40,035 bases of DNA from Fimbriimonadia bacterium (GTDB taxonomy: Bacteria > Armatimonadota > Fimbriimonadia > Fimbriimonadales > Fimbriimonadaceae), in the NCBI GenBank assembly GCA_029824475.1, contig JALGYA010000001.1, forward strand, positions 1-40,035. Reading direction: 5' to 3'. Position numbers and translations under genes: made by a program. Positions 17,801-30,404 of this stretch are shown piece by piece (position 1 is the first letter of the stretch; every line of letters begins with the position of its first letter). Below the pieces are notes generated by a model. The model was not told the origin of the DNA and did not search any database. It saw only the letters and a program-made list of their open reading frames with translations.

Positions 17801-18388
17801 CTACTTGTCCTCGTCTTCTGCAGGCTGGAACTCGAGCGCTTGTGAGTTGATGCAGAACCGGAGGCCGGACTTGTCTCTCGGGCCGTCGGTGAAGACGTGG
17901 CCGAGGTGTCCGTCACACCGGGTGGCGAGCACTTCCATGCGGACCATGCCGTGGCTGGTGTCTGCGCGCAGCCAGATCGAATCCATGTCGTACGGCTGGA
18001 AGAATGCGGGCCAGCCTGAGCCGGAGTCAAACTTGGCGTCCGACTTGAAGACGGGCTGCTTTGTGCCCGCGACGACGAAGACGCCGTCGCCCTTGGTGTC
18101 CTGGAACGGGCTGCAGAACGGCGGCTCTGTGCCCTGCTTTCGCAGGATCCTGTACTGCTCCGCAGTCAGGAGATCCCTCCATTCGGAGTCGGTCTTTTCG
18201 ATCCGATCATCCTTGTTTGGGTTTTCAGCAAGAAAGCCCTTGTATGGCCCTTCCGCAAAGCGTCCGTCCTCGATTTTCCAACCCAAAATGCCGTTCTCCT
18301 TTGCGCTCTGACGCTGCGCGGCATAGACTCCCAAGCCGCCTGCCGACAGAGCGATGGCTGCCACTGCAAGACTTGTCGCAGTTGTCAT
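17801..18388 (-). CDS. msrB: Membrane-anchored peptide-methionine (R)-S-oxide reductase
   Basis: A 195-residue protein: an N-terminal anchor or signal (TSLAVAAIALSAGGLGVYAA), a linker, then the MsrB domain (about residues 65-190). Motifs are SGSGWPAFFQPYD, VRMEVLATRCDGHLGHVF, DGPRDKSGLRFCINSQAL. The catalytic Cys is in RFCINS (usually RYCINS). The two CxxC zinc sites of many MsrBs are not seen, so it is the zinc-free type. It repairs oxidised methionine in exported proteins. It may be co-transcribed with the metal-transporter-like gene, which would fit a metal or oxidative stress pair; that is inference. Confidence 0.92.
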   Translation of the reverse strand: MTTATSLAVAAIALSAGGLGVYAAQRQSAKENGILGWKIEDGRFAEGPYKGFLAENPNKDDRIEKTDSEWRDLLTAEQYRILRKQGTEPPFCSPFQDTKGDGVFVVAGTKQPVFKSDAKFDSGSGWPAFFQPYDMDSIWLRADTSHGMVRMEVLATRCDGHLGHVFTDGPRDKSGLRFCINSQALEFQPAEDEDK

Positions 18389-18494: not shown

Positions 18495-20435
18495 ATGAAC
18501 CGACCATCACGCAGCCTCATCCGTTCGACTCTTGAGGCTGAGAGCCTGGAGAAGTCGCTCCGGCGTCTGTTTGTTGACCTGCTTGGCTGGAGCGAGCCCT
18601 CTGCATCTGACTCCTATGATGGGCTCACGGCGATCGCAAAGGTCGGCAATCTGACGCTGTTGTTGAGCGATCAGGAGCCGGCGGATCAGCTGAGCGGACC
18701 CCGCGTGATGGCCTTGGAAATGCGTGACTCTCACTCGTTTGACCTCCTCTTTCTCGATGCTGGTCCGTGGCAGAGAATCTCGGTGGACCGAGACAACCCA
18801 GGGTCGGACACCCTTGAAAGGCTGGCTGGCTTGGCGGTGCCGAGCATTGCAGCGGAATCCGGGGCTGAGAAGCTTGTAATTCAGGCCCTTCGAGACACAT
18901 TTTGCCCCTCAGGAGCGGCAGAGGACTTCCTGGCGGAATACGAGAGAGTTTTTCTTAGGCACGTAGATTCAGTACGTGTGATCACGACCACAACGGGCCG
19001 TCGTGAGAAGCCGATGGAGCCGCCGGAGATGAGGACGCTGTTTCTTCAGCGGTTCCTCAATCGAGTTCTTCTCATCAGGCTGCTGGAGGACAAGGGCTGG
19101 TTCAGATTTGGTGGGCGGCAGGACTATCTCAAAGCCCTTTACGACGACTGGCAGGAGCGGCCCGGCCCGTACGCGTTCTATCAGCGACTGGCACTGGTCT
19201 TTTTCAATGCACTGAGTCAGCCCTCAGCCGAAGCCCGGGGGCTGCTGAGGTCGCAGGTTGGGCAGGTGCCATACCTGGGCAGAGGCCTGTTTGCTCCCGA
19301 TCAGTTTGAGTCGGAGTTTTCAACGCACCAAGGCCTCGGGGTTATTCCGGACGAGCTTTTCGAGGACCTGCTCGGGCCGAGTGGGCTGCTGAACGTGACT
19401 CAATTCTCTGCAATGGAGGGCGTTCCCGAAGTCGTGAATACAGCCGTCTCTCCGGAGGTTCTCAGCCTCATGCGCGGCCGGCTGGTTGAAAGCGCTGGAG
19501 ACGAGCCCGACTCTATCGAGCTTCAGATTCGGTGCCGACAGGCGATTGCCGACAAGCTCGGAGTGGATGTGGGTGACTTGGCTGCTCCCGGCGACAAGGC
19601 TGACAAGATTCTGGCTGGGCTGTCTGGCGTTCATATTTTTGACTCTCCTTGTGGGACCGGCTCGTACCTTGCGGCCATGCTGCTTGAGCTGGTGGGGCTG
19701 AATATGAGGTGTTCTGCGCTCTCAGAATCTGGCCCGGAGCCGCGCTCCATCGTTTCGAGAAGGCTGCTCGAGAACTCGATCAGGGGACTAGATGACGACG
19801 AGTTTCTCGTTCAAGTCGCGCGGTTCCGGCTGGCGCTGACTGTGCTGGGGCAAGATGACGACCCAGCACCGCGGCCGCTGCCAGACATCTCGCAGATCGT
19901 GCTGATTGGAGACACGATCGACAGGTCGAGCCTTCGCGAGTCAGGGGAGAGGGCGATGAGCGAGGGGCCACAGACTGAATTCAAGGCGTCCTTCGAGTGG
20001 AGCCAACATCAGAAGGCTCGCAGCGGAGATTTGAGACACGCCAGCCTCAAGACTATCGCAGCGTTCCTAAATAGTGAGGGCGGCACGCTTTGGATTGGGG
20101 TTGATGACGCCGGGCGAGCGGTTGGGCTGGAAGATGACCTGGCCCTGATCGAGGATGAGCAGAAGCTCGACACATTTGAGAACCGGCTGCGTGAGTTCCT
20201 AAAGAACCACCTCGACCCGATGCCGCTGAACAGCGTGAAAGTCACCTTCCCTGAGCTTGACGGCGTGCTTGTGTGCAGCGTGGAGGTGGACCCGCGTGAT
20301 GGGGTCACCTACCTTGTCCGGAAAGACCCCCAGTCTGGGCAGGTGATGGAGGAGATCTACGTTCGTGACGGGATGCGGACGATCAGCTTGAAGGGCCGGT
20401 CGAGGGACCAGTTTATTCTGGGTCGACGCCCTTAG
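18495..20435 (+). CDS. Truncated N6-adenine methyltransferase fold fused to Schlafen-type AlbA_2 domain
   Basis: A 646-residue protein. Residues about 150-300 resemble the helical part of type IIG/Eco57I-like methyltransferases (MRTLFLQRFLNRVLLIRLLE, then DKGWFRF). SAM motif I is DSPCGTGSYLAAMLLE (from residue 383), followed by SIRGLDDDEFLVQVARFRLA, the usual next strand and helix. The chain then reaches ISQIVLIGDTI, where the catalytic NPPY motif should come within a short distance. Instead it becomes an AlbA_2 domain from about residue 493: TEFKASFEW, TIAAFLNSEGGTLWIGVDD, RAVGLEDD and the end EIYVRDGMRTI. No NPPY is present anywhere, and no PD-(D/E)xK nuclease motif is visible at the N-terminus. 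It stands alone between divergent msrB and a convergent envelope operon. Function unknown; defence or regulation is likely from the domains. Confidence 0.8.
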   Translation: MNRPSRSLIRSTLEAESLEKSLRRLFVDLLGWSEPSASDSYDGLTAIAKVGNLTLLLSDQEPADQLSGPRVMALEMRDSHSFDLLFLDAGPWQRISVDRDNPGSDTLERLAGLAVPSIAAESGAEKLVIQALRDTFCPSGAAEDFLAEYERVFLRHVDSVRVITTTTGRREKPMEPPEMRTLFLQRFLNRVLLIRLLEDKGWFRFGGRQDYLKALYDDWQERPGPYAFYQRLALVFFNALSQPSAEARGLLRSQVGQVPYLGRGLFAPDQFESEFSTHQGLGVIPDELFEDLLGPSGLLNVTQFSAMEGVPEVVNTAVSPEVLSLMRGRLVESAGDEPDSIELQIRCRQAIADKLGVDVGDLAAPGDKADKILAGLSGVHIFDSPCGTGSYLAAMLLELVGLNMRCSALSESGPEPRSIVSRRLLENSIRGLDDDEFLVQVARFRLALTVLGQDDDPAPRPLPDISQIVLIGDTIDRSSLRESGERAMSEGPQTEFKASFEWSQHQKARSGDLRHASLKTIAAFLNSEGGTLWIGVDDAGRAVGLEDDLALIEDEQKLDTFENRLREFLKNHLDPMPLNSVKVTFPELDGVLVCSVEVDPRDGVTYLVRKDPQSGQVMEEIYVRDGMRTISLKGRSRDQFILGRRP

Positions 20436-21811
20436 CCGATGGGGCCGGAGAGGCCGCCGCCGATTCCGCCGCCACCGCCAGATGCCTTCTCTTCGTCGTC
20501 GATCGGGGAGACGCCTCTGATCGACTTGGCGGACATCTTCTCGACATCTTTCTTGGTGGAGATGCCAAATTCGATGGCCTGGTAGTCATCGCCTGTCGAG
20601 CCCTTGAGCCGTGCGTCGCGATTGCCTTCGCGGCTGGTGAGCGTCAGCCAGTCCTTTTCACCATCGAAGTCTGCGCGGTGCGCCCAGATCATGCGCCAGC
20701 GTCCTTCTGGGAGCTCCTGCCTGGCTTGGGGGCTGCCCGTGATGATCGCCTTTCGGCTGCCCTTGTCGTACCAGTACTCGATCTTCTCTGAGAGGACTGT
20801 GACGGGATAGTCGCGCAGATTTTCTGTGTCTCGAACTTGGTCGTCTAGAGATCGTTCCGGGTCGTCTTTTGGAGGCAGGGGACGGTTGGCTTTCAGTTCG
20901 TCAGGCACGTAAGGCGTGAGCGGGGGGATCTCAACTTCTTCGAGCTTCTGCTCTTCCTCAGCCTTGATGAGGAGGTTTACGCCGTTTTCAAGCACGACGC
21001 GCTTCTCTTTGCGGTAGATGGTCGCTTTCGGGCACGACAGATTCGACTCTTCCCCGAAGAACTTGACGTCACCTTCGGCCACGAGAACGTCCGTGTCCCG
21101 GTTGTGGGTGATCTTCTTGGCGCGGATGATGACTTCCCCATCGGTCGCCCGTGCAGCGGTGTAGACCCAGATGTCGCCGTCTGCATCCATCTGCTCGGCA
21201 TCGAATTCCCACTGGGCCTGCTCATCCTGTTCCTGCAGAGACGCCTTGCCTTTCCAGTTGATCGGTCCGGCGGAAATCGTCTCCGCCTTGGGACTCATGA
21301 TGAGATTCTCCGCATCGACCTCTCCGCCTCCTAAGATCCCGGTGAATCGGCCTGGCGCTTCGAGCAGATCCTCATTCCGCAAGAACGTGAATTCGGGAGT
21401 TCGGATGTCCATATCCTCGTCCTGGTAGATCCTCGCCCCCGCATCAACGGTGAGCGTGTGGCGATAGTTGTGGTAGTTGGCTCTGGCGGCTTCGAAATGG
21501 TAAGGGTCGCCCTTTTCGGGATAGAAGACGCCTTCGGTGACCTGAGTGAGTGTCGCGCGGCTGCGATCCTTGGTCACGGCCATCACGGCCGCATGCGCCT
21601 CGATGGTCATGCGGCCCTTGCGATACGACTTGAAGTCCGCATCGTTCATCCGGATCCCTGGGGATTCAGGTTCGGATTTGTCGATCCGATACGCGGCCAT
21701 CGCGTCGACATCGACGACCATGCTGACGGCGTACCAGGCAGCGGCGATGGAGGCCGCTGAGAGCGCCCACCAAGCCAGCCTTGATCCTTTGCCGTTAACT
21801 GATCGTGACAT
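20432..21811 (-). CDS. LptC/OstA-like envelope protein
   Basis: A 459-residue protein with one N-terminal membrane anchor (LAWWALSAASIAAAWYAVSM) and a long periplasmic beta-rich part. Repeating strands such as ATLTQVTEGVFYPEKG, YHFEAARANYHNYRHTLTV and VLVAEGDVKFFGE are of the LptC and OstA/LptA type, which carry lipopolysaccharide from inner to outer membrane. It is longer than E. coli LptC (191 aa) and may combine LptC and LptA roles. It ends in an odd Gly-rich tail (GGGGGIGGGLSGPIG). It is the last gene of the eight-gene envelope operon: its start overlaps the preceding lipoprotein gene by 17 bp, and its stop overlaps the convergent methyltransferase-AlbA_2 gene by TTAG. Confidence 0.75.
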   Translation of the reverse strand: MSRSVNGKGSRLAWWALSAASIAAAWYAVSMVVDVDAMAAYRIDKSEPESPGIRMNDADFKSYRKGRMTIEAHAAVMAVTKDRSRATLTQVTEGVFYPEKGDPYHFEAARANYHNYRHTLTVDAGARIYQDEDMDIRTPEFTFLRNEDLLEAPGRFTGILGGGEVDAENLIMSPKAETISAGPINWKGKASLQEQDEQAQWEFDAEQMDADGDIWVYTAARATDGEVIIRAKKITHNRDTDVLVAEGDVKFFGEESNLSCPKATIYRKEKRVVLENGVNLLIKAEEEQKLEEVEIPPLTPYVPDELKANRPLPPKDDPERSLDDQVRDTENLRDYPVTVLSEKIEYWYDKGSRKAIITGSPQARQELPEGRWRMIWAHRADFDGEKDWLTLTSREGNRDARLKGSTGDDYQAIEFGISTKKDVEKMSAKSIRGVSPIDDEEKASGGGGGIGGGLSGPIG

Positions 21812-22667
21812 TCTGCGTCACCTTCTCATTGACAGACGTGACGGTGACCCCTGCCGTTCCTGACAGGCCGCCGTTCTCTGCTTCCAGAGTATAGGTGCCA
21901 ACGGGCGCCCAAATGTAGAATTTGCCAGCACCATCTGCAGTTGCTGTGCGGATGATGTTGGCTCCGGACTTCAATTCGACGGTCGCACCGGCAGCCTCGC
22001 CGACGGGGAGCACCGTGCCTTCGATGTTGAATGGCGGTGGTGGGGGATCGTCAGATCCTTCCGGAGTCATCGCGACATCACCGACTTCGACGAGGCCAGC
22101 ACTCGCTCCGGAGGGTGGGCTGAAGAACTTCGTGAAGTAGCCGGTCCTGGCGATGCTTCCCTGGAGCCCGAGGAAGACCGCGAGGGCATCGGGTGAGTAG
22201 GCGACTCCGTCCAGGGAGAACGTGCCATCTGCAGCCGTGACCGTTTCGACTCCGGCCATTTTGACTAGGCCGCCCGCAATTGGGGAGGAGTCTGCCGTGC
22301 TGACAGCTCGACCCTGCACGCTGACGGTCTCCGGGCCGATGTAGATGTCGCCGAGGTCTGCGTTCGCGGTTTTGGGTTCGAAATTGAACGTTCTGACGAT
22401 GGGCGTGGTTGTGCCTGGTTCGGTCCAGGTGATCGTGATGGACGCGACGCCGGAGGACGTATCGAGCTGGAACGACCCGTCTACAGTGCTGGATAGAGTG
22501 GAAGCTTCGCCCGATCTGATCGTTGCCGCTGGCTCTACGCCTGCTCCTGTCTCGACCCAGAGGACTCGGCCGAAGAGGCTGACGGGAGCACCTGCTCCTC
22601 CTCCTCCTCCGCCGCCACAGCCAGCGATGATCGCTATGATGAGCAGGAGCGGGAGAAGACGGCTCAT
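21795..22667 (-). CDS. Lipoprotein with carboxypeptidase-regulatory-like beta domains
   Basis: A 290-residue protein starting MSRLLPLLLIIAIIAGC with lipobox IAGC, followed by eight or so Gly residues. Three beta-sandwich modules follow, each with the pattern of a CarboxypepD_reg or Ig-like repeat: SLFGRVLWVETGAGVEPA, VQGRAVSTADSSPIAGG with AADGTFSLDGV, and NIEGTVLPVGEAAGATV. A Pro-rich linker (PEGSDDPPPPPF) precedes the last. Such modules are structural and often bind other surface proteins. It overlaps the 921-aa gene by ATGA and the LptC-like gene by 17 bp. Confidence 0.8.
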   Translation of the reverse strand: MSRLLPLLLIIAIIAGCGGGGGGGAGAPVSLFGRVLWVETGAGVEPAATIRSGEASTLSSTVDGSFQLDTSSGVASITITWTEPGTTTPIVRTFNFEPKTANADLGDIYIGPETVSVQGRAVSTADSSPIAGGLVKMAGVETVTAADGTFSLDGVAYSPDALAVFLGLQGSIARTGYFTKFFSPPSGASAGLVEVGDVAMTPEGSDDPPPPPFNIEGTVLPVGEAAGATVELKSGANIIRTATADGAGKFYIWAPVGTYTLEAENGGLSGTAGVTVTSVNEKVTQNVTIS

Positions 22668-25429
22668 CGGCGGCCTCCTTCGACTCTAAGCGTCTCCGTG
22701 GTGCTTCTGGCTTTGAAGCTCCAGATTCTTGATCCACGGACTCTGGATCGGCGGCCTCTGTGGGTGATGTTGAGGCTGGCGCGTCCGTCGATCGGTTCGA
22801 CTTGGATCGTATACGTCTTGCCTGGCGTGAGGCCGGTGAGCTCGACGTCGTATCGGCTTCTGCTCCGGCGCATTGAGCGGATGTCGCGGTACATCCTGCC
22901 CGCTCCGAGCAGGCTGGCTTGGAGACCGCCGAGGCTTGGGGGGAGGCCGGAGTCGTGCTTGAGGTCGAAGCCGTCGGTGGCATCGCTTGACCTTCCGATT
23001 AGCACTTGGCTTGTGTTGCCGTGCTCATCCTGTAGCCTGATCCGTGACTCCCAGCTTGAGGTGCGGTCGATTCCGCCTCCCCAGCCGAAGCCCCTCGCGA
23101 GAGGCGTGAACGGCATAGAAGGCGTCAGCGGCTGATCGGGGAAGAAGATCAGGACCGCGCCTTCAGCGCGAACAGATCGGACGAAGAGCGCTCCACCTGC
23201 TGGGAACTCAGTCGCTTCGACGAACGTGCCTTCGTCAGGATTTCCTGCTTCCGGAGACCACTCAAACAGCTTGGTGCCGATGATCGTGCCGAGGCCCTCA
23301 TCGAATGTTGAGAGGGATTCAGCTGCCGTCGTCACCCAGATACGACTGAAGGGTGTCGCCCCTTCAAAAGGCGATGAGACTGCATTCCAGCCGGGCCGGA
23401 GATGGACCGCGATCGGCTCAGGGCCGGGCGCCCAGCCTCGGACTGTGGGGGCAGCGAATAGAGAGGGAGGGCGAATGAATGTGCCCGAGCCTCTCATCAT
23501 GCTCCCGAAGTCTGGAAAGAGCTCATATCTACCAAGGGTGGCGTTATAGGACGCCGCCAAGGTGTCGTTGACCGGCAGGCCCAGAACCTGGTCGACCCCG
23601 GTTCGGAACGGCTGCAGCGGCATGCCAACCAGGTCCATGCCTTCAGCGGGATCGAGCAGATACTCTGCATCAAGAGATGGATGCTTGAGATCGAGGGCAA
23701 TCGATCCGAATCCCTTGCTCACCTTTCGGACCAGCACTTCAGTGACGCTTCCGCCATCGACATGGAAGACGGTGACTGTCAGGGGCTGTGCGCGGTTGAA
23801 GTTCTCATCCTCGACGAGAAAGCCGAATGCATCGTTGACTGCGCTGGCGGAATGGTCAGAACCGATCCACTCCACCTTGACCGTGTAGTGGGCGGAGCCG
23901 GGATCGGGGAAACCTGTTAGGGTGCCGAAGAAGTTGTTCGGGTCATTGGGATTGCCTTGGCCTGTGGCAAATGCGCCAGCGGGCAGAGCCGCACGAGCGA
24001 CCTGGCCATCAAACGGCATATCTACCGTAGCCCTGTAGATTTGGTCCGCGAACAGATTGGAGCTGAAGTTCGGAACAGCGGAACCAAAGCCTCCGGACAT
24101 CGGGATGACGTCCTCCTGGGTGGTGGTGAAGAACCGGACGTCGTCGGGTCGCCAGAAGATCGGATAGACGGTGCCGGAGGAGAGCGTTTCATTGCCAGCC
24201 TGATCGCTGCGCCACGCATTGACCACTAGGCCGAAGACGCCAAAGTCGTCGGAGCCTGGAGTCGGCAGGATCGGGAATGGCTGAAGCAGCACGTGCTGGC
24301 CGGCCTGCTCGGTTGTGTCGAAGATCGGCTGGCGTTCTGACCAGTCAGCGAAGGACCTGCCTTCGATGGTGCTATTCGCTCCGCCCCCGACCGTGTCGAG
24401 CGCCTGCTGGGCGAGAGTCTCCAGGGCAGAGATGTCCTGGTACGCGCCGGGGCTCTGATAGAACTGGCCGTTCATCTGGGAGATGAACGCCGGGTGTTCT
24501 GCGTGGATTTTGCCGAAAGCTGAGCCTGCCATCTGGTAGCGGAGCAGGAAGATGCCGCCCGTGTTGCCGCCAGGAGGAAGCTGGGTGGCGAGCAGGTTTG
24601 GCGCGATGAACGGATTGGCGCCGAGGCCCGGCTGGCTGTACCAGTCGTAGAACGGCATGACGTCATAGAGCGACTCGAGAACGGCCTCTATTTCGCCCGC
24701 AGATGGGTCCCCTGGTATTGCGTTTGGAGTCCGCGCGATCGCCATTGTGGCGGAGCGAACCATGCCTTCATTCCAGGCATCGGTGGGGTACTGCGCGTCG
24801 ACCATGTAGGCGAGCAGGAGAGTGTGGATGAAAGCGATGGACGCTGAGGTCTCGCTCGTGTAGATGGGGAATCTGATTTCGGGGCCGGAGGAGCCGTTGG
24901 CGACGTAGTATCCACCGGCTACAGCATAGCGGTCTTCGATGTCAGCGTCGAAGTTGAGGACGCGGACCGTGCTGGTCGTCTTCGGCTTGCCGAAGACTGC
25001 GTTGAGTGCCACCTTTGCGTCATCGAAAGTCTGCTCAAGGAGATCCTTGTAGTCGGATGGAAAAGACCGTTCGCCAGCGCTTTCAAAGGTGAGATGCAGC
25101 TCTGGATCTGGTTCGCGGCCGAAGATGACAGGCCGGAGAGAGCGTGTCTGGACGCTCGGCAGAGGAACGCCGAAGCGAGTGAGGACCACTCGCTGAGGAA
25201 GGAACAGCGGCTGCTTGTGACCGAGCAGATCTCTTTGAGCCGACCTCACGCCCGAAGAGAGCTGCGCCGTTCTCTGGGCAAAGGTGCGGACGGCAGCGTC
25301 GATCTGGGCATCGACGACTTCCTTGCGTGCGTTGGCGACCTCTACTCTCAGATCCGCGGCCTGCAGAGCTAACGCTGTGCAGGCCGCGAGGCAGGAGCAG
25401 AGGAACCTGATCGTTCCTCGCGTTGACAT
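22664..25429 (-). CDS. Large secreted protein with degenerate gluzincin-like motif
   Basis: A 921-residue protein with a signal peptide (FLCSCLAACTALALQA, then AD). The N-terminal third has FIHTLLLAYM (His202) followed by WNEGMVRSATM, which has the layout of a gluzincin metallopeptidase (HExxH then E in an EG helix), but the second half of HExxH is missing. The rest is beta-rich, with several parts resembling secreted adhesin or Ig-like modules, and ends in RRSRSRYDVELTGLTPGKTY, a fibronectin-III-like strand pattern. I do not recognise a family. It is translationally linked to the lipoprotein downstream (ATGA) and starts 7 bp after the stop of the preceding lipoprotein gene. Confidence 0.75.
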   Translation of the reverse strand: MSTRGTIRFLCSCLAACTALALQAADLRVEVANARKEVVDAQIDAAVRTFAQRTAQLSSGVRSAQRDLLGHKQPLFLPQRVVLTRFGVPLPSVQTRSLRPVIFGREPDPELHLTFESAGERSFPSDYKDLLEQTFDDAKVALNAVFGKPKTTSTVRVLNFDADIEDRYAVAGGYYVANGSSGPEIRFPIYTSETSASIAFIHTLLLAYMVDAQYPTDAWNEGMVRSATMAIARTPNAIPGDPSAGEIEAVLESLYDVMPFYDWYSQPGLGANPFIAPNLLATQLPPGGNTGGIFLLRYQMAGSAFGKIHAEHPAFISQMNGQFYQSPGAYQDISALETLAQQALDTVGGGANSTIEGRSFADWSERQPIFDTTEQAGQHVLLQPFPILPTPGSDDFGVFGLVVNAWRSDQAGNETLSSGTVYPIFWRPDDVRFFTTTQEDVIPMSGGFGSAVPNFSSNLFADQIYRATVDMPFDGQVARAALPAGAFATGQGNPNDPNNFFGTLTGFPDPGSAHYTVKVEWIGSDHSASAVNDAFGFLVEDENFNRAQPLTVTVFHVDGGSVTEVLVRKVSKGFGSIALDLKHPSLDAEYLLDPAEGMDLVGMPLQPFRTGVDQVLGLPVNDTLAASYNATLGRYELFPDFGSMMRGSGTFIRPPSLFAAPTVRGWAPGPEPIAVHLRPGWNAVSSPFEGATPFSRIWVTTAAESLSTFDEGLGTIIGTKLFEWSPEAGNPDEGTFVEATEFPAGGALFVRSVRAEGAVLIFFPDQPLTPSMPFTPLARGFGWGGGIDRTSSWESRIRLQDEHGNTSQVLIGRSSDATDGFDLKHDSGLPPSLGGLQASLLGAGRMYRDIRSMRRSRSRYDVELTGLTPGKTYTIQVEPIDGRASLNITHRGRRSRVRGSRIWSFKARSTTETLRVEGGRR

Positions 25430-25436
25430 GGCCTTA

Positions 25437-26741
25437 CTATCTTATGAAGGATCCGATCTCACTAAGAGTTCGGCTCGTGTCGTTATTTGCAAGCCCAAGC
25501 ACTATGTAGTAGTACTCTTTGTTGACCTGCAGCGACGGCCCATCATACACAAAGCTGAGGCCGGTCGTCACCTGATGGCTTGAGTTCCAGACCGAATCGA
25601 CCCCTGGTCCCGGGTAGCGGTCGAACAGGAACACGATGTAGTCCTCCGAATAGGAGCCTGCCGCCCACTGGAATTCGAGCGGATTGTAGAGGAAGGGGCG
25701 CAGGTCGAGGCGGTCCAGGACTTCGACTTCCACGATGTTGCTGAGGAGGCTCTCAGTGCGTTCGTAGTCATCCGGGAACCAGGCAGAGAGCGTAGTGACC
25801 GCGTATTCGTAGGAGCGCCTCGTCTGAACTCCGGAATCGAAGAACCAGGCCGAGAGCGGGTCATCCATGAAGTAGAGGCCGTTGAGGAGGCCGCCTACAA
25901 CGTCTGCTCGGTAGACACCCCAGCCGAGGTGGTCGTCAAAGCGCTGCTCATCCCATTCGAGTTCGACTTCTGCGAGGAGGTCGTCGCGGAGATTTCTTGT
26001 CTCGCCAACCTTCTTGGCCTTGCGGTCAGGTTCGTACATCTGCTTGAACCACTCGATGTCACGCTGGCCGCGTCCATCGACCGTGGGCGAGACCCAGGAG
26101 ATGGCCGTCAAGAAATTGGGGGGATCGAGTGTCGGAGTGCCTGCATCACCGAGGACAAGGTCGAGCCTGATTGAACTGTCAGCTGTGGGATTGACCCAGT
26201 CGCCGTCAGAGCGGTAACCCCAGGCCATGGCTGTGATCTCGTAGTCGATGCCGCCAACCAGGCGCTTGAATTCGTAGATGCCATCGGCGTTTGAGAATGT
26301 CCTGGCAGCGGAGCCTGCGCCGCTGTAGGCGAAGACGGGCATATTTTCGAGCAGAGCGCCGTCTCTGTTTCGAATCTCACCCCAAACCTCGCCAAGCTGG
26401 GTTTCTGGGGCTGCGACGATGAGAGCGCTTTTGGTCTCTTCACCAGCAAAGTTGTAGACCCAGGTTTCGCCTTCGTAGGTGGCGCCTGAATCGTCGAAGT
26501 ACTCCGCTGTGATTTTGACCTCACCGTTGGTGATGCCAAACAGCTGGAAGCCTCCGCTGGAGGTCGTGATTGTGGACTCGCCGTCTGCGCGGACGATCGC
26601 TCCTCGGAGCGGTCCACTGTCGAGGTCAACGACTTTGCCGGTAATTGAGGAGCTTGCTGAAAAGCCGGGATCTCCTCCACACCCGATGAGGGCTCCGGTT
26701 AGCGCGGCGACGATGACGGCTAAGAGTGTGAGCTTCTTCAT
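25437..26741 (-). CDS. Lipoprotein with carboxypeptidase-regulatory-like domains
   Basis: A 434-residue protein with signal and lipobox (MKKLTLLAVIVAALTG, then ALIGC). The N-terminal half has two CarboxypepD_reg-type modules: SITGKVVDLDSGPLRGAIV with SSGGFQLFGI, and GEVWGEIRNRDGALLENMP with NADGIYEFKRL. The C-terminal half, with RRSYEYAVTTLSAWF and YYYIVLGLANN, is fibronectin-III-like. It resembles the second lipoprotein of this operon in design. Probably faces the periplasm or surface and partners the beta-barrel encoded just upstream. An AAGGAA lies 6 bases before its ATG. Confidence 0.78.
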   Translation of the reverse strand: MKKLTLLAVIVAALTGALIGCGGDPGFSASSSITGKVVDLDSGPLRGAIVRADGESTITTSSGGFQLFGITNGEVKITAEYFDDSGATYEGETWVYNFAGEETKSALIVAAPETQLGEVWGEIRNRDGALLENMPVFAYSGAGSAARTFSNADGIYEFKRLVGGIDYEITAMAWGYRSDGDWVNPTADSSIRLDLVLGDAGTPTLDPPNFLTAISWVSPTVDGRGQRDIEWFKQMYEPDRKAKKVGETRNLRDDLLAEVELEWDEQRFDDHLGWGVYRADVVGGLLNGLYFMDDPLSAWFFDSGVQTRRSYEYAVTTLSAWFPDDYERTESLLSNIVEVEVLDRLDLRPFLYNPLEFQWAAGSYSEDYIVFLFDRYPGPGVDSVWNSSHQVTTGLSFVYDGPSLQVNKEYYYIVLGLANNDTSRTLSEIGSFIR

Positions 26742-26782
26742 GAAAGATTCCTTACTGATTTGACGTTGTGCGGAGCAGGCTG

Positions 26783-29350
26783 TTACATACCAAAGTTGAA
26801 CGCGAGCTCAAGGTCGAAGCCGTTCGAAGTGAAGGCTCCGCTGGAAACGGTCTGATCCCTGCTGATGATATCACGATGCCGGTAAGACAGGTTCACCGCA
26901 AGCCCTCGCCAAATTCGATACTGGTAGGTGAGGGATGCCTCAGTGATGTCTTGTGGCAGATAGCCGTTGATGCTGCCCTTCATGAGGAGGGCCGAGAGGC
27001 TGTGCCGGTCGGTGAGGCGATAGCTTGCCTGGAGGTCGAACGCGCCGCTGTCCTGGCGGAAATCGCTGTTGCCGCCTGTGAGCAGCCAGCTCGCCCCTGC
27101 TCGGTACGAGAACTTCCTGGAAGGTGCGCCATCGAGGCTGACATTGATCGACGTGGCGTTCGACTTGAAGGCCGAGTCGATGTAGTTCGTCTTGTCGTAG
27201 CTGATCGAGGAGTCGAACGAGAGGGCGGTTCCAAGATCCCACCGCGAGGTGAGGTAGACGCTGCTGATTTCGCTGTTCGAGCTGACTGTTCCCTTGCTGC
27301 GGTAGAGCGAGGTGCCAAGACCGAGGGAAAGAACATCCGATGGATCATAGTTGGCGTTGACGCTGACGCGCTTGAAGCTCGCTGTTCCTCGGAGCGGATC
27401 GGTTCCCGCTCCACCGCTGTATCCATTGCCGTTGAACCCGTAGCCATAGCCGCTGCTGAACCCGTCAAGTGAAGAGACATCGCCCGCATCGCTGTCGATG
27501 TAGCTGAGGTTTCCGCTCAGCTTTTCGCTGGGCGAGTAAGTGAGTCCAAACTGGACGTCGCGTCCGAATCCATCGTCTTCGCTTGTCTTGATTTTGCTGA
27601 AGCTGGTGCTGAGGCTCATCCCCCAGTCCTGGCCGATCGAGTAGCTCGACCGGAGCGCAAGGGTGTCGAGGTTTAATCGCTGCCGGGTGAGGTCTTGGGG
27701 GTCGATTGCGGGCGCGTCGGCCGTCTGGTGCGAAGCCTCCAGAGTTGTGCTGAGTCTGCCCCAGCTCTTCGAAGTTCTCAGCGAGGTTGTGTCGATGGTT
27801 GTTTCGCCGCCGAGGGGTCGACGCGACGCTGTTCGGCTCTGCGTCAGCGTGAGGGGTATGCCACCAGCTGTGGGAACCAGGGTGTAAGACGCGTTCGCCT
27901 TGGTGAACCTGAGCGGGGTGATGACCGCACCGCCATCACCGGCTGTCGACCGCTGAAGGGCCACGGTGTTTCGATGAGACACTTCGAAGGTGTGTCGTTT
28001 TGACGGCTCATATCTGAGGCGCAGATCATGTGCCTTCTCGTTGCGGTTGAACCCGGTCGTTTCGATGGAGACATAGCCTTCGGGAACATCTCGGAATGAG
28101 CCATTGAACTGGAGCTTTTTGTACTGGTACCGGAGGTCCGCGCCCTTCGCCGTCCCTGTTGAGGGTGTTGGCGAGTTGAACAGCCGACCTTCAGCTGAGT
28201 AGACCGTGAGAGAGTTCTGCTTGCCCAGGGGAAGACGATAATCAAAGCCCAGCACTTCGCGATCACCATTCACCGTTGTTGTCGGTTTGGGCGTGTAGAG
28301 CACATCGATGGTCGACGTGGACGGCATGTACCGGTTGAAGTAGAAAATGGAAGGGTTGTCTAAATCGAAGACGTAGTCGATTCCCGCAACTTGGAGGACG
28401 CCATCCGCGCGGATTACGATCGGCTCGGTGAGGAGCGGCTCGAAGGAGAGGAAGTAAGGCGTGCTGGCTGGGCCGAACCCTTGGAATCTGTCGAGCTTGG
28501 TTGAGAGCTGCGACGTGCTGCCCGTTGTCTGTCGCATGACGGTCACGCCGAGTCTGCCCGCACTGCCCATGTCATAGGTCGTTCCGGCTGCGAGCAGCCT
28601 GCCTCTCGATCCGGAGAAGCCGAAGACCTCGTACGTGACCAAGATCGTGCTGGTTGGCGGGACGATGCGCCCTTCGAGCGTTCGGCGATTGATGAAGGAG
28701 ATCGCGCCTAGGTCGTAGTCGATCGTGTAGTCGGAGCCGAACGACTGCCGCACGCCGTCGATCTCGACAGTCTCGGAGCCTCGGACGACCTGCGAACTCT
28801 GCAGGAAGTAGGGGCCGGGGGAGTTAGTTCCGTTGAGGCTGATCGTGCGCGGTTCGCCGCGCACTTCGGTGGACATCGCCTTGATTTTGAATCCGCCCGA
28901 TTCGTATCCCACGGATGAGCCGCGGAGAGTTTTGCTGAAATGAGCGAGGCGGTTTGTGTTGAGCAGGCGGCCTTGAATGTCGCCCAATTGGACCGCCCAA
29001 TCTCCGCGCTTGACGTCGATCGTGAAGCGCTTGCTCTGCGGATCGTCGAAGCGGCTGTCCTGGAGGCTGAAATTGAAGTTGAGGACCCCGAGGACTTGGC
29101 GACCGGCGATGTAGACGCTGCCGACATCGGTGAAGCGCTGACCACCCATCCCGTAGGTGGTTGTCAGGTTGAACGCCTCTTGATCGCCGGTGACTCTGTG
29201 GCTGTGCCAGCCGAGCCGCCTAAAGCCGTTCATCGTGACTCGGCTTGCGATCTCCTTTTGGTACCACTTCTCGATCCACGACTCATCCGCGACAGCTGCC
29301 GCGCTGAGGGGCAGCGTGAGTAGGATCAGAGCGAGCGAGCGCTTAGCCAA
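26783..29350 (-). CDS. Predicted outer-membrane beta-barrel protein
   Basis: About 855 residues. From about residue 330 to the end there are long alternating strands ending in aromatic residues, closing with SNGFDLELAFNFGM, a typical barrel end. The N-terminal part has two copies of a module: GPYFLQSSQVVRGSETVEID with YTIDYDLGAISF, and TPYFLSFEPLLTEPIVIRAD with YVFDLDNPSIFYF. I take the TTG at 29350 as start because it gives a clean signal peptide (AKRSLALILLTLPLSAAAVA) and an 8-bp overlap with csaB. The frame also opens upstream to 29467, but that would overlap csaB by 125 bp. Exact role unknown; the operon suggests surface-layer or lipopolysaccharide assembly. Confidence 0.72.
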   Translation of the reverse strand: MAKRSLALILLTLPLSAAAVADESWIEKWYQKEIASRVTMNGFRRLGWHSHRVTGDQEAFNLTTTYGMGGQRFTDVGSVYIAGRQVLGVLNFNFSLQDSRFDDPQSKRFTIDVKRGDWAVQLGDIQGRLLNTNRLAHFSKTLRGSSVGYESGGFKIKAMSTEVRGEPRTISLNGTNSPGPYFLQSSQVVRGSETVEIDGVRQSFGSDYTIDYDLGAISFINRRTLEGRIVPPTSTILVTYEVFGFSGSRGRLLAAGTTYDMGSAGRLGVTVMRQTTGSTSQLSTKLDRFQGFGPASTPYFLSFEPLLTEPIVIRADGVLQVAGIDYVFDLDNPSIFYFNRYMPSTSTIDVLYTPKPTTTVNGDREVLGFDYRLPLGKQNSLTVYSAEGRLFNSPTPSTGTAKGADLRYQYKKLQFNGSFRDVPEGYVSIETTGFNRNEKAHDLRLRYEPSKRHTFEVSHRNTVALQRSTAGDGGAVITPLRFTKANASYTLVPTAGGIPLTLTQSRTASRRPLGGETTIDTTSLRTSKSWGRLSTTLEASHQTADAPAIDPQDLTRQRLNLDTLALRSSYSIGQDWGMSLSTSFSKIKTSEDDGFGRDVQFGLTYSPSEKLSGNLSYIDSDAGDVSSLDGFSSGYGYGFNGNGYSGGAGTDPLRGTASFKRVSVNANYDPSDVLSLGLGTSLYRSKGTVSSNSEISSVYLTSRWDLGTALSFDSSISYDKTNYIDSAFKSNATSINVSLDGAPSRKFSYRAGASWLLTGGNSDFRQDSGAFDLQASYRLTDRHSLSALLMKGSINGYLPQDITEASLTYQYRIWRGLAVNLSYRHRDIISRDQTVSSGAFTSNGFDLELAFNFGM

Positions 29351-30404
29351 GGGTTGAGTTGAGCACCTCAATACTGACTTTAGCCTCTTCTGCAAGCTCT
29401 TCGCGCCTCCGCTTGACCTGGCTGACAAGAGAGTCGCGTCGGGAAATGAAATCTTTGAATCCATCAACGATGCGCTCGGGTTGAGCGCTTTCTAAAGTGG
29501 GAGGGGCTGCGAGGCCGAGAGAGTTCGCCAGACCCGTCACTTTTGGATCGTACGAAATGAGATAGGGCGGCACACCGGCTGCTGCAGCGAGAATTCCCGC
29601 GTGGAGTCTGACAGCGATGACGGACTCCAGGCGAGAAAGCCTGCGCATCATGTCGCTTGGGTTCGTGATGCCCTTGAGAGAGGGGATTTTGCCGCCTGCA
29701 GCGTTCGAAATCTCTTGGATGAGTTCGGAGTCGTGCTCGCTGTCCATCGGGATCATCAGCGGCATGAATCCCTCTTTGACTAGGAGCCTGCTCAGTTCGC
29801 TGAAGAACTTGACCGTGTCTTTCTTCTTTCCCCACGGGCGGGGAGCGATGCCGACGGCCTTCATGCCTCCGGCTTGAAATTCATCTTCATCGGAGTGGAC
29901 AGGCTCCGGGAGGAGGAAGGCCATATCTGCCGCGAGCCGAGGTGCTTTGGTGACTCCCAGCGCACCCAGGGCACTGACTGAACCAGCATCACGAACAGTG
30001 ATCTGATCAGCAAGGTTGAAGGCGGTCACAGCTGACCTCTTCCCGAAGAATGACTTTAGCGGGCCGATGCCTTGACTCAGCAGAAGCACCTTCTTGTCCG
30101 CCTTTTTTGCCATGTGGACAATGCTTGAGTAGTAGATCGCGCTGCGGGAGCTGGTCACATCTTGGAAGATCGATCCGCCTGGGAAGACGACGGCATCACA
30201 CTGCTTGATGGCCTCTTTGATGGCGCTGAGGTCTTTGCGTGGGACGGGCGTGACGCCGAGCTGCTGCACTCTTGAGAGGTTTCCCGCGAGGGCTCTGACC
30301 TCATATCCGAGGCCGTCAATGCCGTTGAGGAAACCGAGGAGGATTGCGTCGTCCCCTAGGTTTCCACAGCCAAAATATCCTGCCAGCAGCAGCTTTGCAC
30401 TCAT
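29343..30404 (-). CDS. csaB: Polysaccharide pyruvyl transferase
   Basis: A 353-residue protein of standard length. It begins KLLLAGYFGCGNLGDDAILL, the hallmark N-terminus of CsaB. Further motifs are VVFPGGSIFQDVTSSRSAIYY, LLLSQGIGPL and SVIAVRLHAGILAAAAGVP. CsaB adds a pyruvyl ketal to a cell-wall polysaccharide, which S-layer homology (SLH) domains then bind. In diderms such as Thermus this system ties the outer envelope to the wall. Its ATG overlaps the DUF5693 stop by four bases (ATGA), and it overlaps the beta-barrel start by 8 bp. A rhomboid and a DUF5693 gene precede it, a pairing typical for csaB loci. Confidence 0.93.
   Translation of the reverse strand: MSAKLLLAGYFGCGNLGDDAILLGFLNGIDGLGYEVRALAGNLSRVQQLGVTPVPRKDLSAIKEAIKQCDAVVFPGGSIFQDVTSSRSAIYYSSIVHMAKKADKKVLLLSQGIGPLKSFFGKRSAVTAFNLADQITVRDAGSVSALGALGVTKAPRLAADMAFLLPEPVHSDEDEFQAGGMKAVGIAPRPWGKKKDTVKFFSELSRLLVKEGFMPLMIPMDSEHDSELIQEISNAAGGKIPSLKGITNPSDMMRRLSRLESVIAVRLHAGILAAAAGVPPYLISYDPKVTGLANSLGLAAPPTLESAQPERIVDGFKDFISRRDSLVSQVKRRREELAEEAKVSIEVLNSTLG

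What the first reader, a model, noticed from the sequence alone, without database searches (positions are those of the whole stretch)
18495..20435. Orphan fusion of a methyltransferase half-domain with a Schlafen-type AlbA_2 domain
The protein keeps SAM motif I (DSPCGTG) and the next strand-helix of an Eco57I-like N6-adenine methyltransferase, but stops exactly where NPPY should begin and continues as AlbA_2. Known type IIG enzymes carry NPPY and usually a target-recognition domain. Here the catalytic half appears replaced. The remaining SAM pocket could sense SAM or bind DNA while AlbA_2 acts. The gene stands alone, as many single-gene defence systems do. This is the best candidate here for an undescribed system.
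Basis: partly seen in the sequence, partly recalled or inferred. Interest (0 to 1): 0.82.

Follow-up and report, generated by a model that had tools for sequence, protein, structure and literature searches.

The report
Dead methyltransferase half fused to Schlafen nuclease
A group of poorly known bacteria (Fimbriimonadaceae) keeps a gene in which the broken front half of a DNA-methylating defence enzyme is joined to an RNA-cutting domain like those of human antiviral proteins; some of its copies differ between sister species far more than the genes beside them, which suggests a role in fighting viruses or other genetic parasites, not in DNA methylation.

Summary
ORF 18495-20435 (646 aa) is a real fusion of an N-terminal half of an Eco57I/MmeI/PglX-type adenine methyltransferase, with no NPPY and no target-recognition domain, and a C-terminal Schlafen AlbA_2 domain. 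It is not a local deletion: about 22 of 85 Fimbriimonadaceae genomes carry the compact form, under purifying selection in the pairs that can be measured. Full-length relatives (about 1,290 aa, with NPPY and AlbA_2) exist beside an HKD-Snf2 helicase, but their AlbA_2 domains form a separate clade.

The SAM-sensor idea is not supported. Motif X is gone in all compact members, motif I is degraded in most, and 343-368 aa members have lost the SAM region completely. What persists is a helical segment plus AlbA_2 with the Schlafen RNase residues (E490, E495, K497, D538 here).

Neighbours are mostly housekeeping genes, not defence islands. However, in two sister species both compact loci are allelic islands (57-80% nucleotide identity, most flanks 85-97%). 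The nearest AlbA_2 relatives sit in STAND-like operons.

Best reading: a stand-alone conflict effector, a Schlafen-type RNase controlled by a pseudo-methyltransferase scaffold. RNase activity and defence are inferred, not shown.

The parts
18495..20435 (+). Compact pseudo-methyltransferase/AlbA_2 protein, 646 aa; the only AlbA_2 gene found in this genome
18495..19022 (+). Residues 1-176: variable N-terminal region (N-terminus of the methyltransferase relatives; often shortened in other compact members)
19023..19394 (+). Residues 177-300: helical segment, the part of the methyltransferase half still detectable in several of the 343-368 aa members; 77% identical between the window and G059
19620..19922 (+). 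Residues 376-476: half Rossmann sheet (three strands in the AF2 model) with motif I (19641-19661 DSPCGTG), motif II-like GLDDDE (19785-19802) and motif III-like IGD (19905-19913)
19920..19961 (+). Junction, residues 476-489, low model confidence; about 620-650 aa of full-length relatives (rest of the catalytic domain, NPPY, specificity region) are absent here
19956..20426 (+). Residues 488-644: Schlafen AlbA_2 domain with predicted nuclease residues E490 (19962-19964), E495 (19977-19979), K497 (19983-19985), D538 (20106-20108)
17801..18388 (-). Divergent neighbour: SelR/MsrB methionine sulfoxide reductase
20432..21811 (-). Convergent neighbour: LptC/LptA-like envelope protein; stop codons overlap; found in 110 of 113 genomes of the order, so a core gene

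Best explanation
The gene encodes a stand-alone conflict (defence or abortive-infection) effector. The AlbA_2 domain is the working part: a Schlafen/SAMD9-type metal-dependent endoribonuclease, most likely cutting tRNA or other structured RNA. The methyltransferase-derived part is a catalytically dead scaffold. It cannot methylate DNA and probably does not work through SAM; it holds the nuclease in check or carries the surface that detects an intruder or its counter-defence protein, and releases the nuclease on infection. Shown by sequence or model: the architecture, loss of methyltransferase catalytic motifs, conservation of the nuclease residues, the fold match, purifying selection in the measurable pairs, and allelic islands in one species pair. 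Inferred: RNase activity, the substrate, the trigger, and antiviral benefit.
For: Nuclease residues: E490, E495 and K497 are invariant and D538 is kept in 14 of 16 compact members, with the exact E-x4-E-x-K spacing of rat Slfn13 E205/E210/K212 (PMC8789055). Fold: the AlbA_2 part matches the SAMD9 tRNase domain (E=6e-5) and SLFN13; the front part matches MmeI and BrxX. Dead methyltransferase: NPPY and the specificity region absent, motif X lost in all, motif I degraded, and the region lost outright in the g32 members. Selection: omega 0.02-0.19 where it could be estimated, with dN about 3-5 times that of most adjacent housekeeping genes in the two g32 species pairs. Allelic islands: between G054 and G055, both compact loci are 57-80% identical in nearly all bins while most flanking bins are 85-97%; dS is 1.7 to saturated against a median of 0.25; four of the five highest dS values among 81 orthologue pairs are compact genes. 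Closest AlbA_2 relatives are small proteins, at least three of them in operons with STAND-like proteins. Works alone: 11 of 16 carriers tested, including the window genome, lack the HKD-Snf2 helicase of the full-length system.
Against: Neighbours are housekeeping genes, not defence islands. The gene is largely vertically inherited: AlbA_2 distances track LptC distances (Mantel rho 0.34, above all 2000 permutations). No known defence model matches the compact protein as a whole. The allelic-island signal comes from one species pair; other genes in the control also show high dS, and the three tandem copies are one linked event. Several copies in g16 have lost D538 or the whole site, so nuclease activity is not universal. 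Recurrent linkage to an HD phosphohydrolase could point to a housekeeping pathway.
Confidence: 0.5

Rival explanations
1. A domesticated, lineage-specific stress or housekeeping RNase or regulator, derived from a defence enzyme but now serving normal physiology (for example tRNA/rRNA turnover or nucleotide stress together with the neighbouring HD phosphohydrolase).
For: Stable chromosomal sites beside core genes (LptC, guaB, S9 peptidase), repeated directly upstream of an HD hydrolase in about 12 genomes of 4 genera; mostly vertical inheritance; no phage or plasmid carriers of the fusion found.
Against: Present in only about 22 of 85 family members; much faster protein evolution than most neighbours; allelic islands in one pair; pseudo-effector paralogues in tandem arrays.
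Confidence: 0.27
2. A DNA-binding or repair-linked factor: AlbA_2 binds DNA and the protein works with Vsr or DNA-modification systems.
For: A Vsr endonuclease gene lies immediately upstream, overlapping, in four genomes of three genera; the SAMD9 AlbA_2 domain has been crystallised with DNA (7ksp); the methyltransferase half derives from a DNA-binding enzyme.
Against: In the window genome Vsr and Dcm sit together on another contig, away from this gene; most carriers lack the Vsr linkage; the nuclease residues would not need such conservation for binding alone.
Confidence: 0.12
3. A SAM sensor: the retained motif I-III half-pocket binds SAM and gates AlbA_2.
For: The window and G059 proteins keep CGTG and GLD-type motifs.
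Against: Motif X is absent in all; motif I is degraded in most; the region is lost in 343-368 aa members.
Confidence: 0.05
4. A decaying remnant (pseudogene) of a full-length methyltransferase-AlbA_2 gene.
For: The gene lacks the catalytic half, and shorter members look progressively eroded.
Against: Open frames across many divergent genomes, omega well below 1 in measurable pairs, invariant nuclease residues, and an AlbA_2 clade separate from full-length proteins.
Confidence: 0.03

Closest known systems
Type IIG/IIL R-M enzymes and BREX PglX (Eco57I, MmeI, BrxX families)
   Same: N-terminal helical segment and first half of the N6-adenine methyltransferase fold; Foldseek hits to MmeI 5hr4, DrdV 7lo5, BrxX 9ewz; PADLOC IIG and PglX partial matches
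   Different: No motif X, no NPPY, no specificity domain, no endonuclease; cannot be an active methyltransferase
Schlafen (SLFN11/13/14) and SAMD9/9L AlbA_2 nucleases
   Same: Fold (9o0d, 5yd0), E-x4-E-x-K plus Asp site as in Slfn13; in SAMD9L this site is required for translation shut-off and antiviral action (PMC11221667)
   Different: Fused to a methyltransferase remnant instead of a helicase or STAND-type region; activity untested
Bacterial Schlafen defence systems (Taboada et al. 2025, bioRxiv 10.1101/2025.07.24.666596, known here only through its citation in PMC12839542)
   Same: Schlafen-family RNase as predicted immune effector
   Different: That preprint could not be read here; whether it includes pseudo-methyltransferase fusions is unknown. 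PMC12839542 describes Schlafens fused to histidine kinase and wHTH parts
Full-length Eco57I methyltransferase-AlbA_2 proteins beside HKD-Snf2 helicases (L046, L047, L048, L092-L094)
   Same: Same domain order at both ends; one such architecture is the likely ancestor
   Different: 1227-1295 aa in L046-L048, with motif X, motif I, NPPY and a specificity region; AlbA_2 domains in a separate clade (96/97)
EcoPrrI-PrrC (from general knowledge, not tested)
   Same: Analogy only: a DNA-modification enzyme holding a tRNA nuclease in check
   Different: Separate proteins with a type I R-M system; no sequence relation tested

Membership tests
Eco57I/type IIG N6-adenine methyltransferase | SAM motif I (DPACGSG-like) | tested here: met
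   Window D383-SPCGTG-389; degraded in most other compact members
Eco57I/type IIG N6-adenine methyltransferase | Motif X (YYTP) before motif I | tested here: not met
   Absent in window and all compact members; present in full-length relatives
Eco57I/type IIG N6-adenine methyltransferase | Catalytic NPPY motif and specificity domain | tested here: not met
   No [ND]PP[YFW]; about 620-650 aa absent relative to full-length proteins
Schlafen/AlbA_2 (PF04326) | Pfam model above curated cut-off | tested here: met
   60.8 bits against cut-off 25.3
Schlafen/AlbA_2 (PF04326) | Three-carboxylate nuclease site plus lysine | tested here: met
   E490/E495/K497/D538, compared with Slfn13 E205/E210/K212/D248
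Schlafen/AlbA_2 (PF04326) | AlbA_2 fold | tested here: met
   AF2 pLDDT about 90 in this region; Foldseek to SAMD9 and SLFN13
Schlafen/AlbA_2 (PF04326) | Ribonuclease activity | not testable with these tools
   Needs biochemistry
Known anti-phage defence system | Whole-protein match to a PADLOC or NCBIfam system model | tested here: not met
   Only partial hits to the methyltransferase half; compact member L036 has no hit
Known anti-phage defence system | Location in defence islands | tested here: not met
   103 neighbour genes: Vsr in four, single hits otherwise
HKD-Snf2/methyltransferase (BREX-related or DISARM-like) system | Helicase partner in the same genome | tested here: not met
   Absent in G000 and 10 other carriers of 16 tested
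Known anti-phage defence system | Protection against phage | not testable with these tools
   Needs plaque assays

The most novel reading that the evidence does not exclude
A single-gene immune system in which a dead methyltransferase half is a decoy for phage anti-restriction or anti-BREX proteins (Ocr-like or other methyltransferase binders); binding of such a protein, not SAM, releases the attached Schlafen RNase and shuts down translation.
Probability: 0.15. Interest if true: 0.82.

Novelty: new variant of a known kind. Interest (0 to 1): 0.58.

Why it matters
If true, this is a bacterial Schlafen-type effector controlled by a pseudo-methyltransferase. It would show how a restriction enzyme can lose its catalytic half while its fused RNase lives on, and would link bacterial R-M proteins with the nuclease domain used by human SLFN and SAMD9 antiviral proteins. 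The family offers a series of natural truncations, from about 1,290 to about 343 aa, for asking which part of a methyltransferase a tethered nuclease needs, and a decoy hypothesis that can be tested with known anti-restriction proteins.

Tried and rejected
Local deletion or frameshift: rejected; the architecture is kept in about 22 genomes. Subunit of the HKD-Snf2 system: rejected for most carriers. SAM sensing as the family's function: rejected by motif loss. Defence island: searched for with PADLOC on 103 neighbours, not found. Conserved Vsr/Dcm partnership in the window genome: rejected; they lie on C208. Phage, plasmid or viral carriers of the fusion: none found. The first genome-contig scan, with the single protein, found nothing. 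Single-protein PDB search by sequence gave only a marginal Schlafen hit. PADLOC on the STAND-like/AlbA_2 operon gave no match. A 359 aa eroded member was modelled (mean pLDDT 74.5, residues 151-200 below 50); the model adds little beyond agreeing that the Rossmann half is gone.

Full report
What is there. The window is one contig (C99) of a 3.08 Mb Fimbriimonadaceae genome assembly in 344 contigs (organism names from kin). ORF 18495-20435 encodes 646 aa. Residues 490-629 are Pfam SLFN_AlbA_2 (E=2.4e-16). Residues about 93-475 match the N-terminal part of Eco57I/type IIG/PglX methyltransferases. Motif I (DSPCGTG) is present; NPPY and YTP are absent. It is the only AlbA_2 gene found in the genome. 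It stands between a divergent msrB and a convergent lptC-like gene with overlapping stop codons.

Not a deletion artefact. In 113 genomes of the order, 43 have some match. Compact proteins joining both halves were found only in the family Fimbriimonadaceae among 291 genomes of the phylum; by my count this is about 22 of 85 family members in 10 genera. A scan of GTDB species genomes with a motif pattern returned compact forms only from Fimbriimonadia/Armatimonadota records; that scan depends on one motif and can miss divergent members. Full-length relatives of 1227-1295 aa carry an Eco57I methyltransferase, in one case a TaqI_C specificity domain, and a C-terminal AlbA_2, and lie beside HKD-Snf2 helicases. 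Aligned with them, the window protein lacks one internal block of roughly 620-650 aa, beginning just after the third Rossmann strand and ending at AlbA_2. In a tree of 45 AlbA_2 domains the full-length proteins and their kin form a clade (96/97) apart from compact ones, so compact genes are not many recent truncations; the position of the root and a single origin are not proven, and the bootstrap had not fully settled.

The methyltransferase is dead and eroding. Motif X is missing in every compact member. The first glycine of motif I survives in 10 of 16. Members of 343-368 aa in genus g32 have lost the motif I-III region while keeping AlbA_2, and in several of them the preceding helical segment is still detectable. 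Mean pairwise identity in the compact set is 0.47 for AlbA_2, 0.27 for the helical segment, 0.25 for the half-Rossmann region and 0.18-0.21 elsewhere. Between the window and its same-genus relative the helical segment is the most conserved part (77%). This argues against SAM sensing as the shared function.

The nuclease site is kept. E490, E495 and K497 are invariant and D538 is present in 14 of the 16 members aligned. Slfn13 uses E205/E210/D248 with K212 nearby (PMC8789055), the same E-x4-E-x-K spacing. The AF2 model (mean pLDDT 82.2, pTM 0.64) matches MmeI and BrxX with its front part and the SAMD9 tRNase domain and SLFN13 with its back part. In SAMD9L this site is essential for translation shut-off and antiviral action (PMC11221667). 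Some copies in g16 have lost part or all of the site.

Context. Of 103 neighbour proteins scanned, only Vsr recurs among defence models (four members; SoFic, ShosA and others once). Vsr overlaps the compact gene upstream in G039, G040, G043 and G012. An HD phosphohydrolase lies directly downstream in about 12 genomes of genera g10, g16, g20 and g32; HD itself is widespread in the order (76 of 113) and often sits convergent to lptC, so the linkage may reflect an ancestral site. In the window genome HD is on another contig. AlbA_2 distances follow LptC distances (rho 0.34, n=21, above all 2000 permutations), so inheritance is mainly vertical.

Allelic islands. G054 (Uphvl-Ar2) and G055 (UBA2785) are close relatives (median dS 0.25 over 81 orthologue pairs). 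Their guaB-linked triplet of compact genes is 59-79% identical at the DNA level in all bins but the last of the third gene (86%), while guaB, the downstream gene and dnaE are mostly 85-97%; the HD-linked compact gene is 57-80% against 88-96% in the S9 peptidase body, hisG and HD. dS is 1.7-2.6 or saturated for the four compact genes against 0.26 and 0.39 for the adjacent S9 peptidase and guaB, and the four are among the five highest of 81 pairs (hypergeometric 3e-6; the three tandem genes are not independent, so the true strength is lower). A permease-like gene and a few others are also high, so exchange is not unique to this family. In two g32 pairs compact dS is close to that of neighbours and dN is about 3-5 times higher than in most flanking genes; HD in one pair is as fast. 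The control covers about 160 kb only, and G055 is a metagenome assembly.

Relatives of the effector. The AlbA_2 proteins closest to compact ones outside the family are small (171-197 aa, one shorter). In G037, G038 and G090 they follow an 807-883 aa protein and a 142-172 aa protein; the 883 aa one, from G090, has weak STAND/AAA and TPR matches. PADLOC does not know this operon.

Judgement. The best-supported reading is a stand-alone conflict effector with a Schlafen-type RNase and a pseudo-methyltransferase control region (0.5). A domesticated housekeeping RNase is the main rival (0.27). RNase activity, substrate, trigger and benefit are inferred. Novelty is set as a new variant of a known kind because bacterial Schlafen defence has been reported (cited in PMC12839542; that preprint was not available to read), while this fusion has no model in the libraries searched.

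Noticed in passing
L042:1633-7260 (G055) and L045:6815-11929 (G054): Tandem triplet of compact genes after guaB in two sister species: one with an intact AlbA_2 site, one with Asp to Asn, one with the whole site lost. It may be an effector with two pseudo-effector partners.
   Followed up: partly
L085:9385-13027, L050:5751-9450, L086:6620-10125 (G090, G038, G037); L084:6760-9743 without a called middle gene: Three-gene operon of an 807-883 aa protein (weak STAND/AAA and TPR matches in the one scanned with Pfam), a 142-172 aa protein and a 171-192 aa AlbA_2 protein, with no PADLOC match: a candidate undescribed STAND/Schlafen module.
   Followed up: partly
L046:7246-14689, L047:7189-14076, L048:6677-13758, L093, L094: Two-gene system of HKD-Snf2 helicase plus Eco57I methyltransferase with C-terminal AlbA_2: restriction nuclease and possible RNase back-up in one pair of genes.
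   Followed up: partly
window 20432-30404: Conserved envelope-like gene run (LptC-like, small secreted protein, 921, 434 and 894 aa) also found in L032, L035 and L041; functions of the large proteins not identified.
   Followed up: no
L078-L083 (g32 genomes): Conserved order: 333-383 aa protein, eroded compact gene, HD phosphohydrolase, convergent transketolase-like gene.
   Followed up: partly
L035:7397-8005, L036:10582-11049, L037:10229-10708, L040:9620-10069: Vsr mismatch endonuclease genes overlapping the compact gene start in three genera, without a C5 methyltransferase seen beside them.
   Followed up: partly
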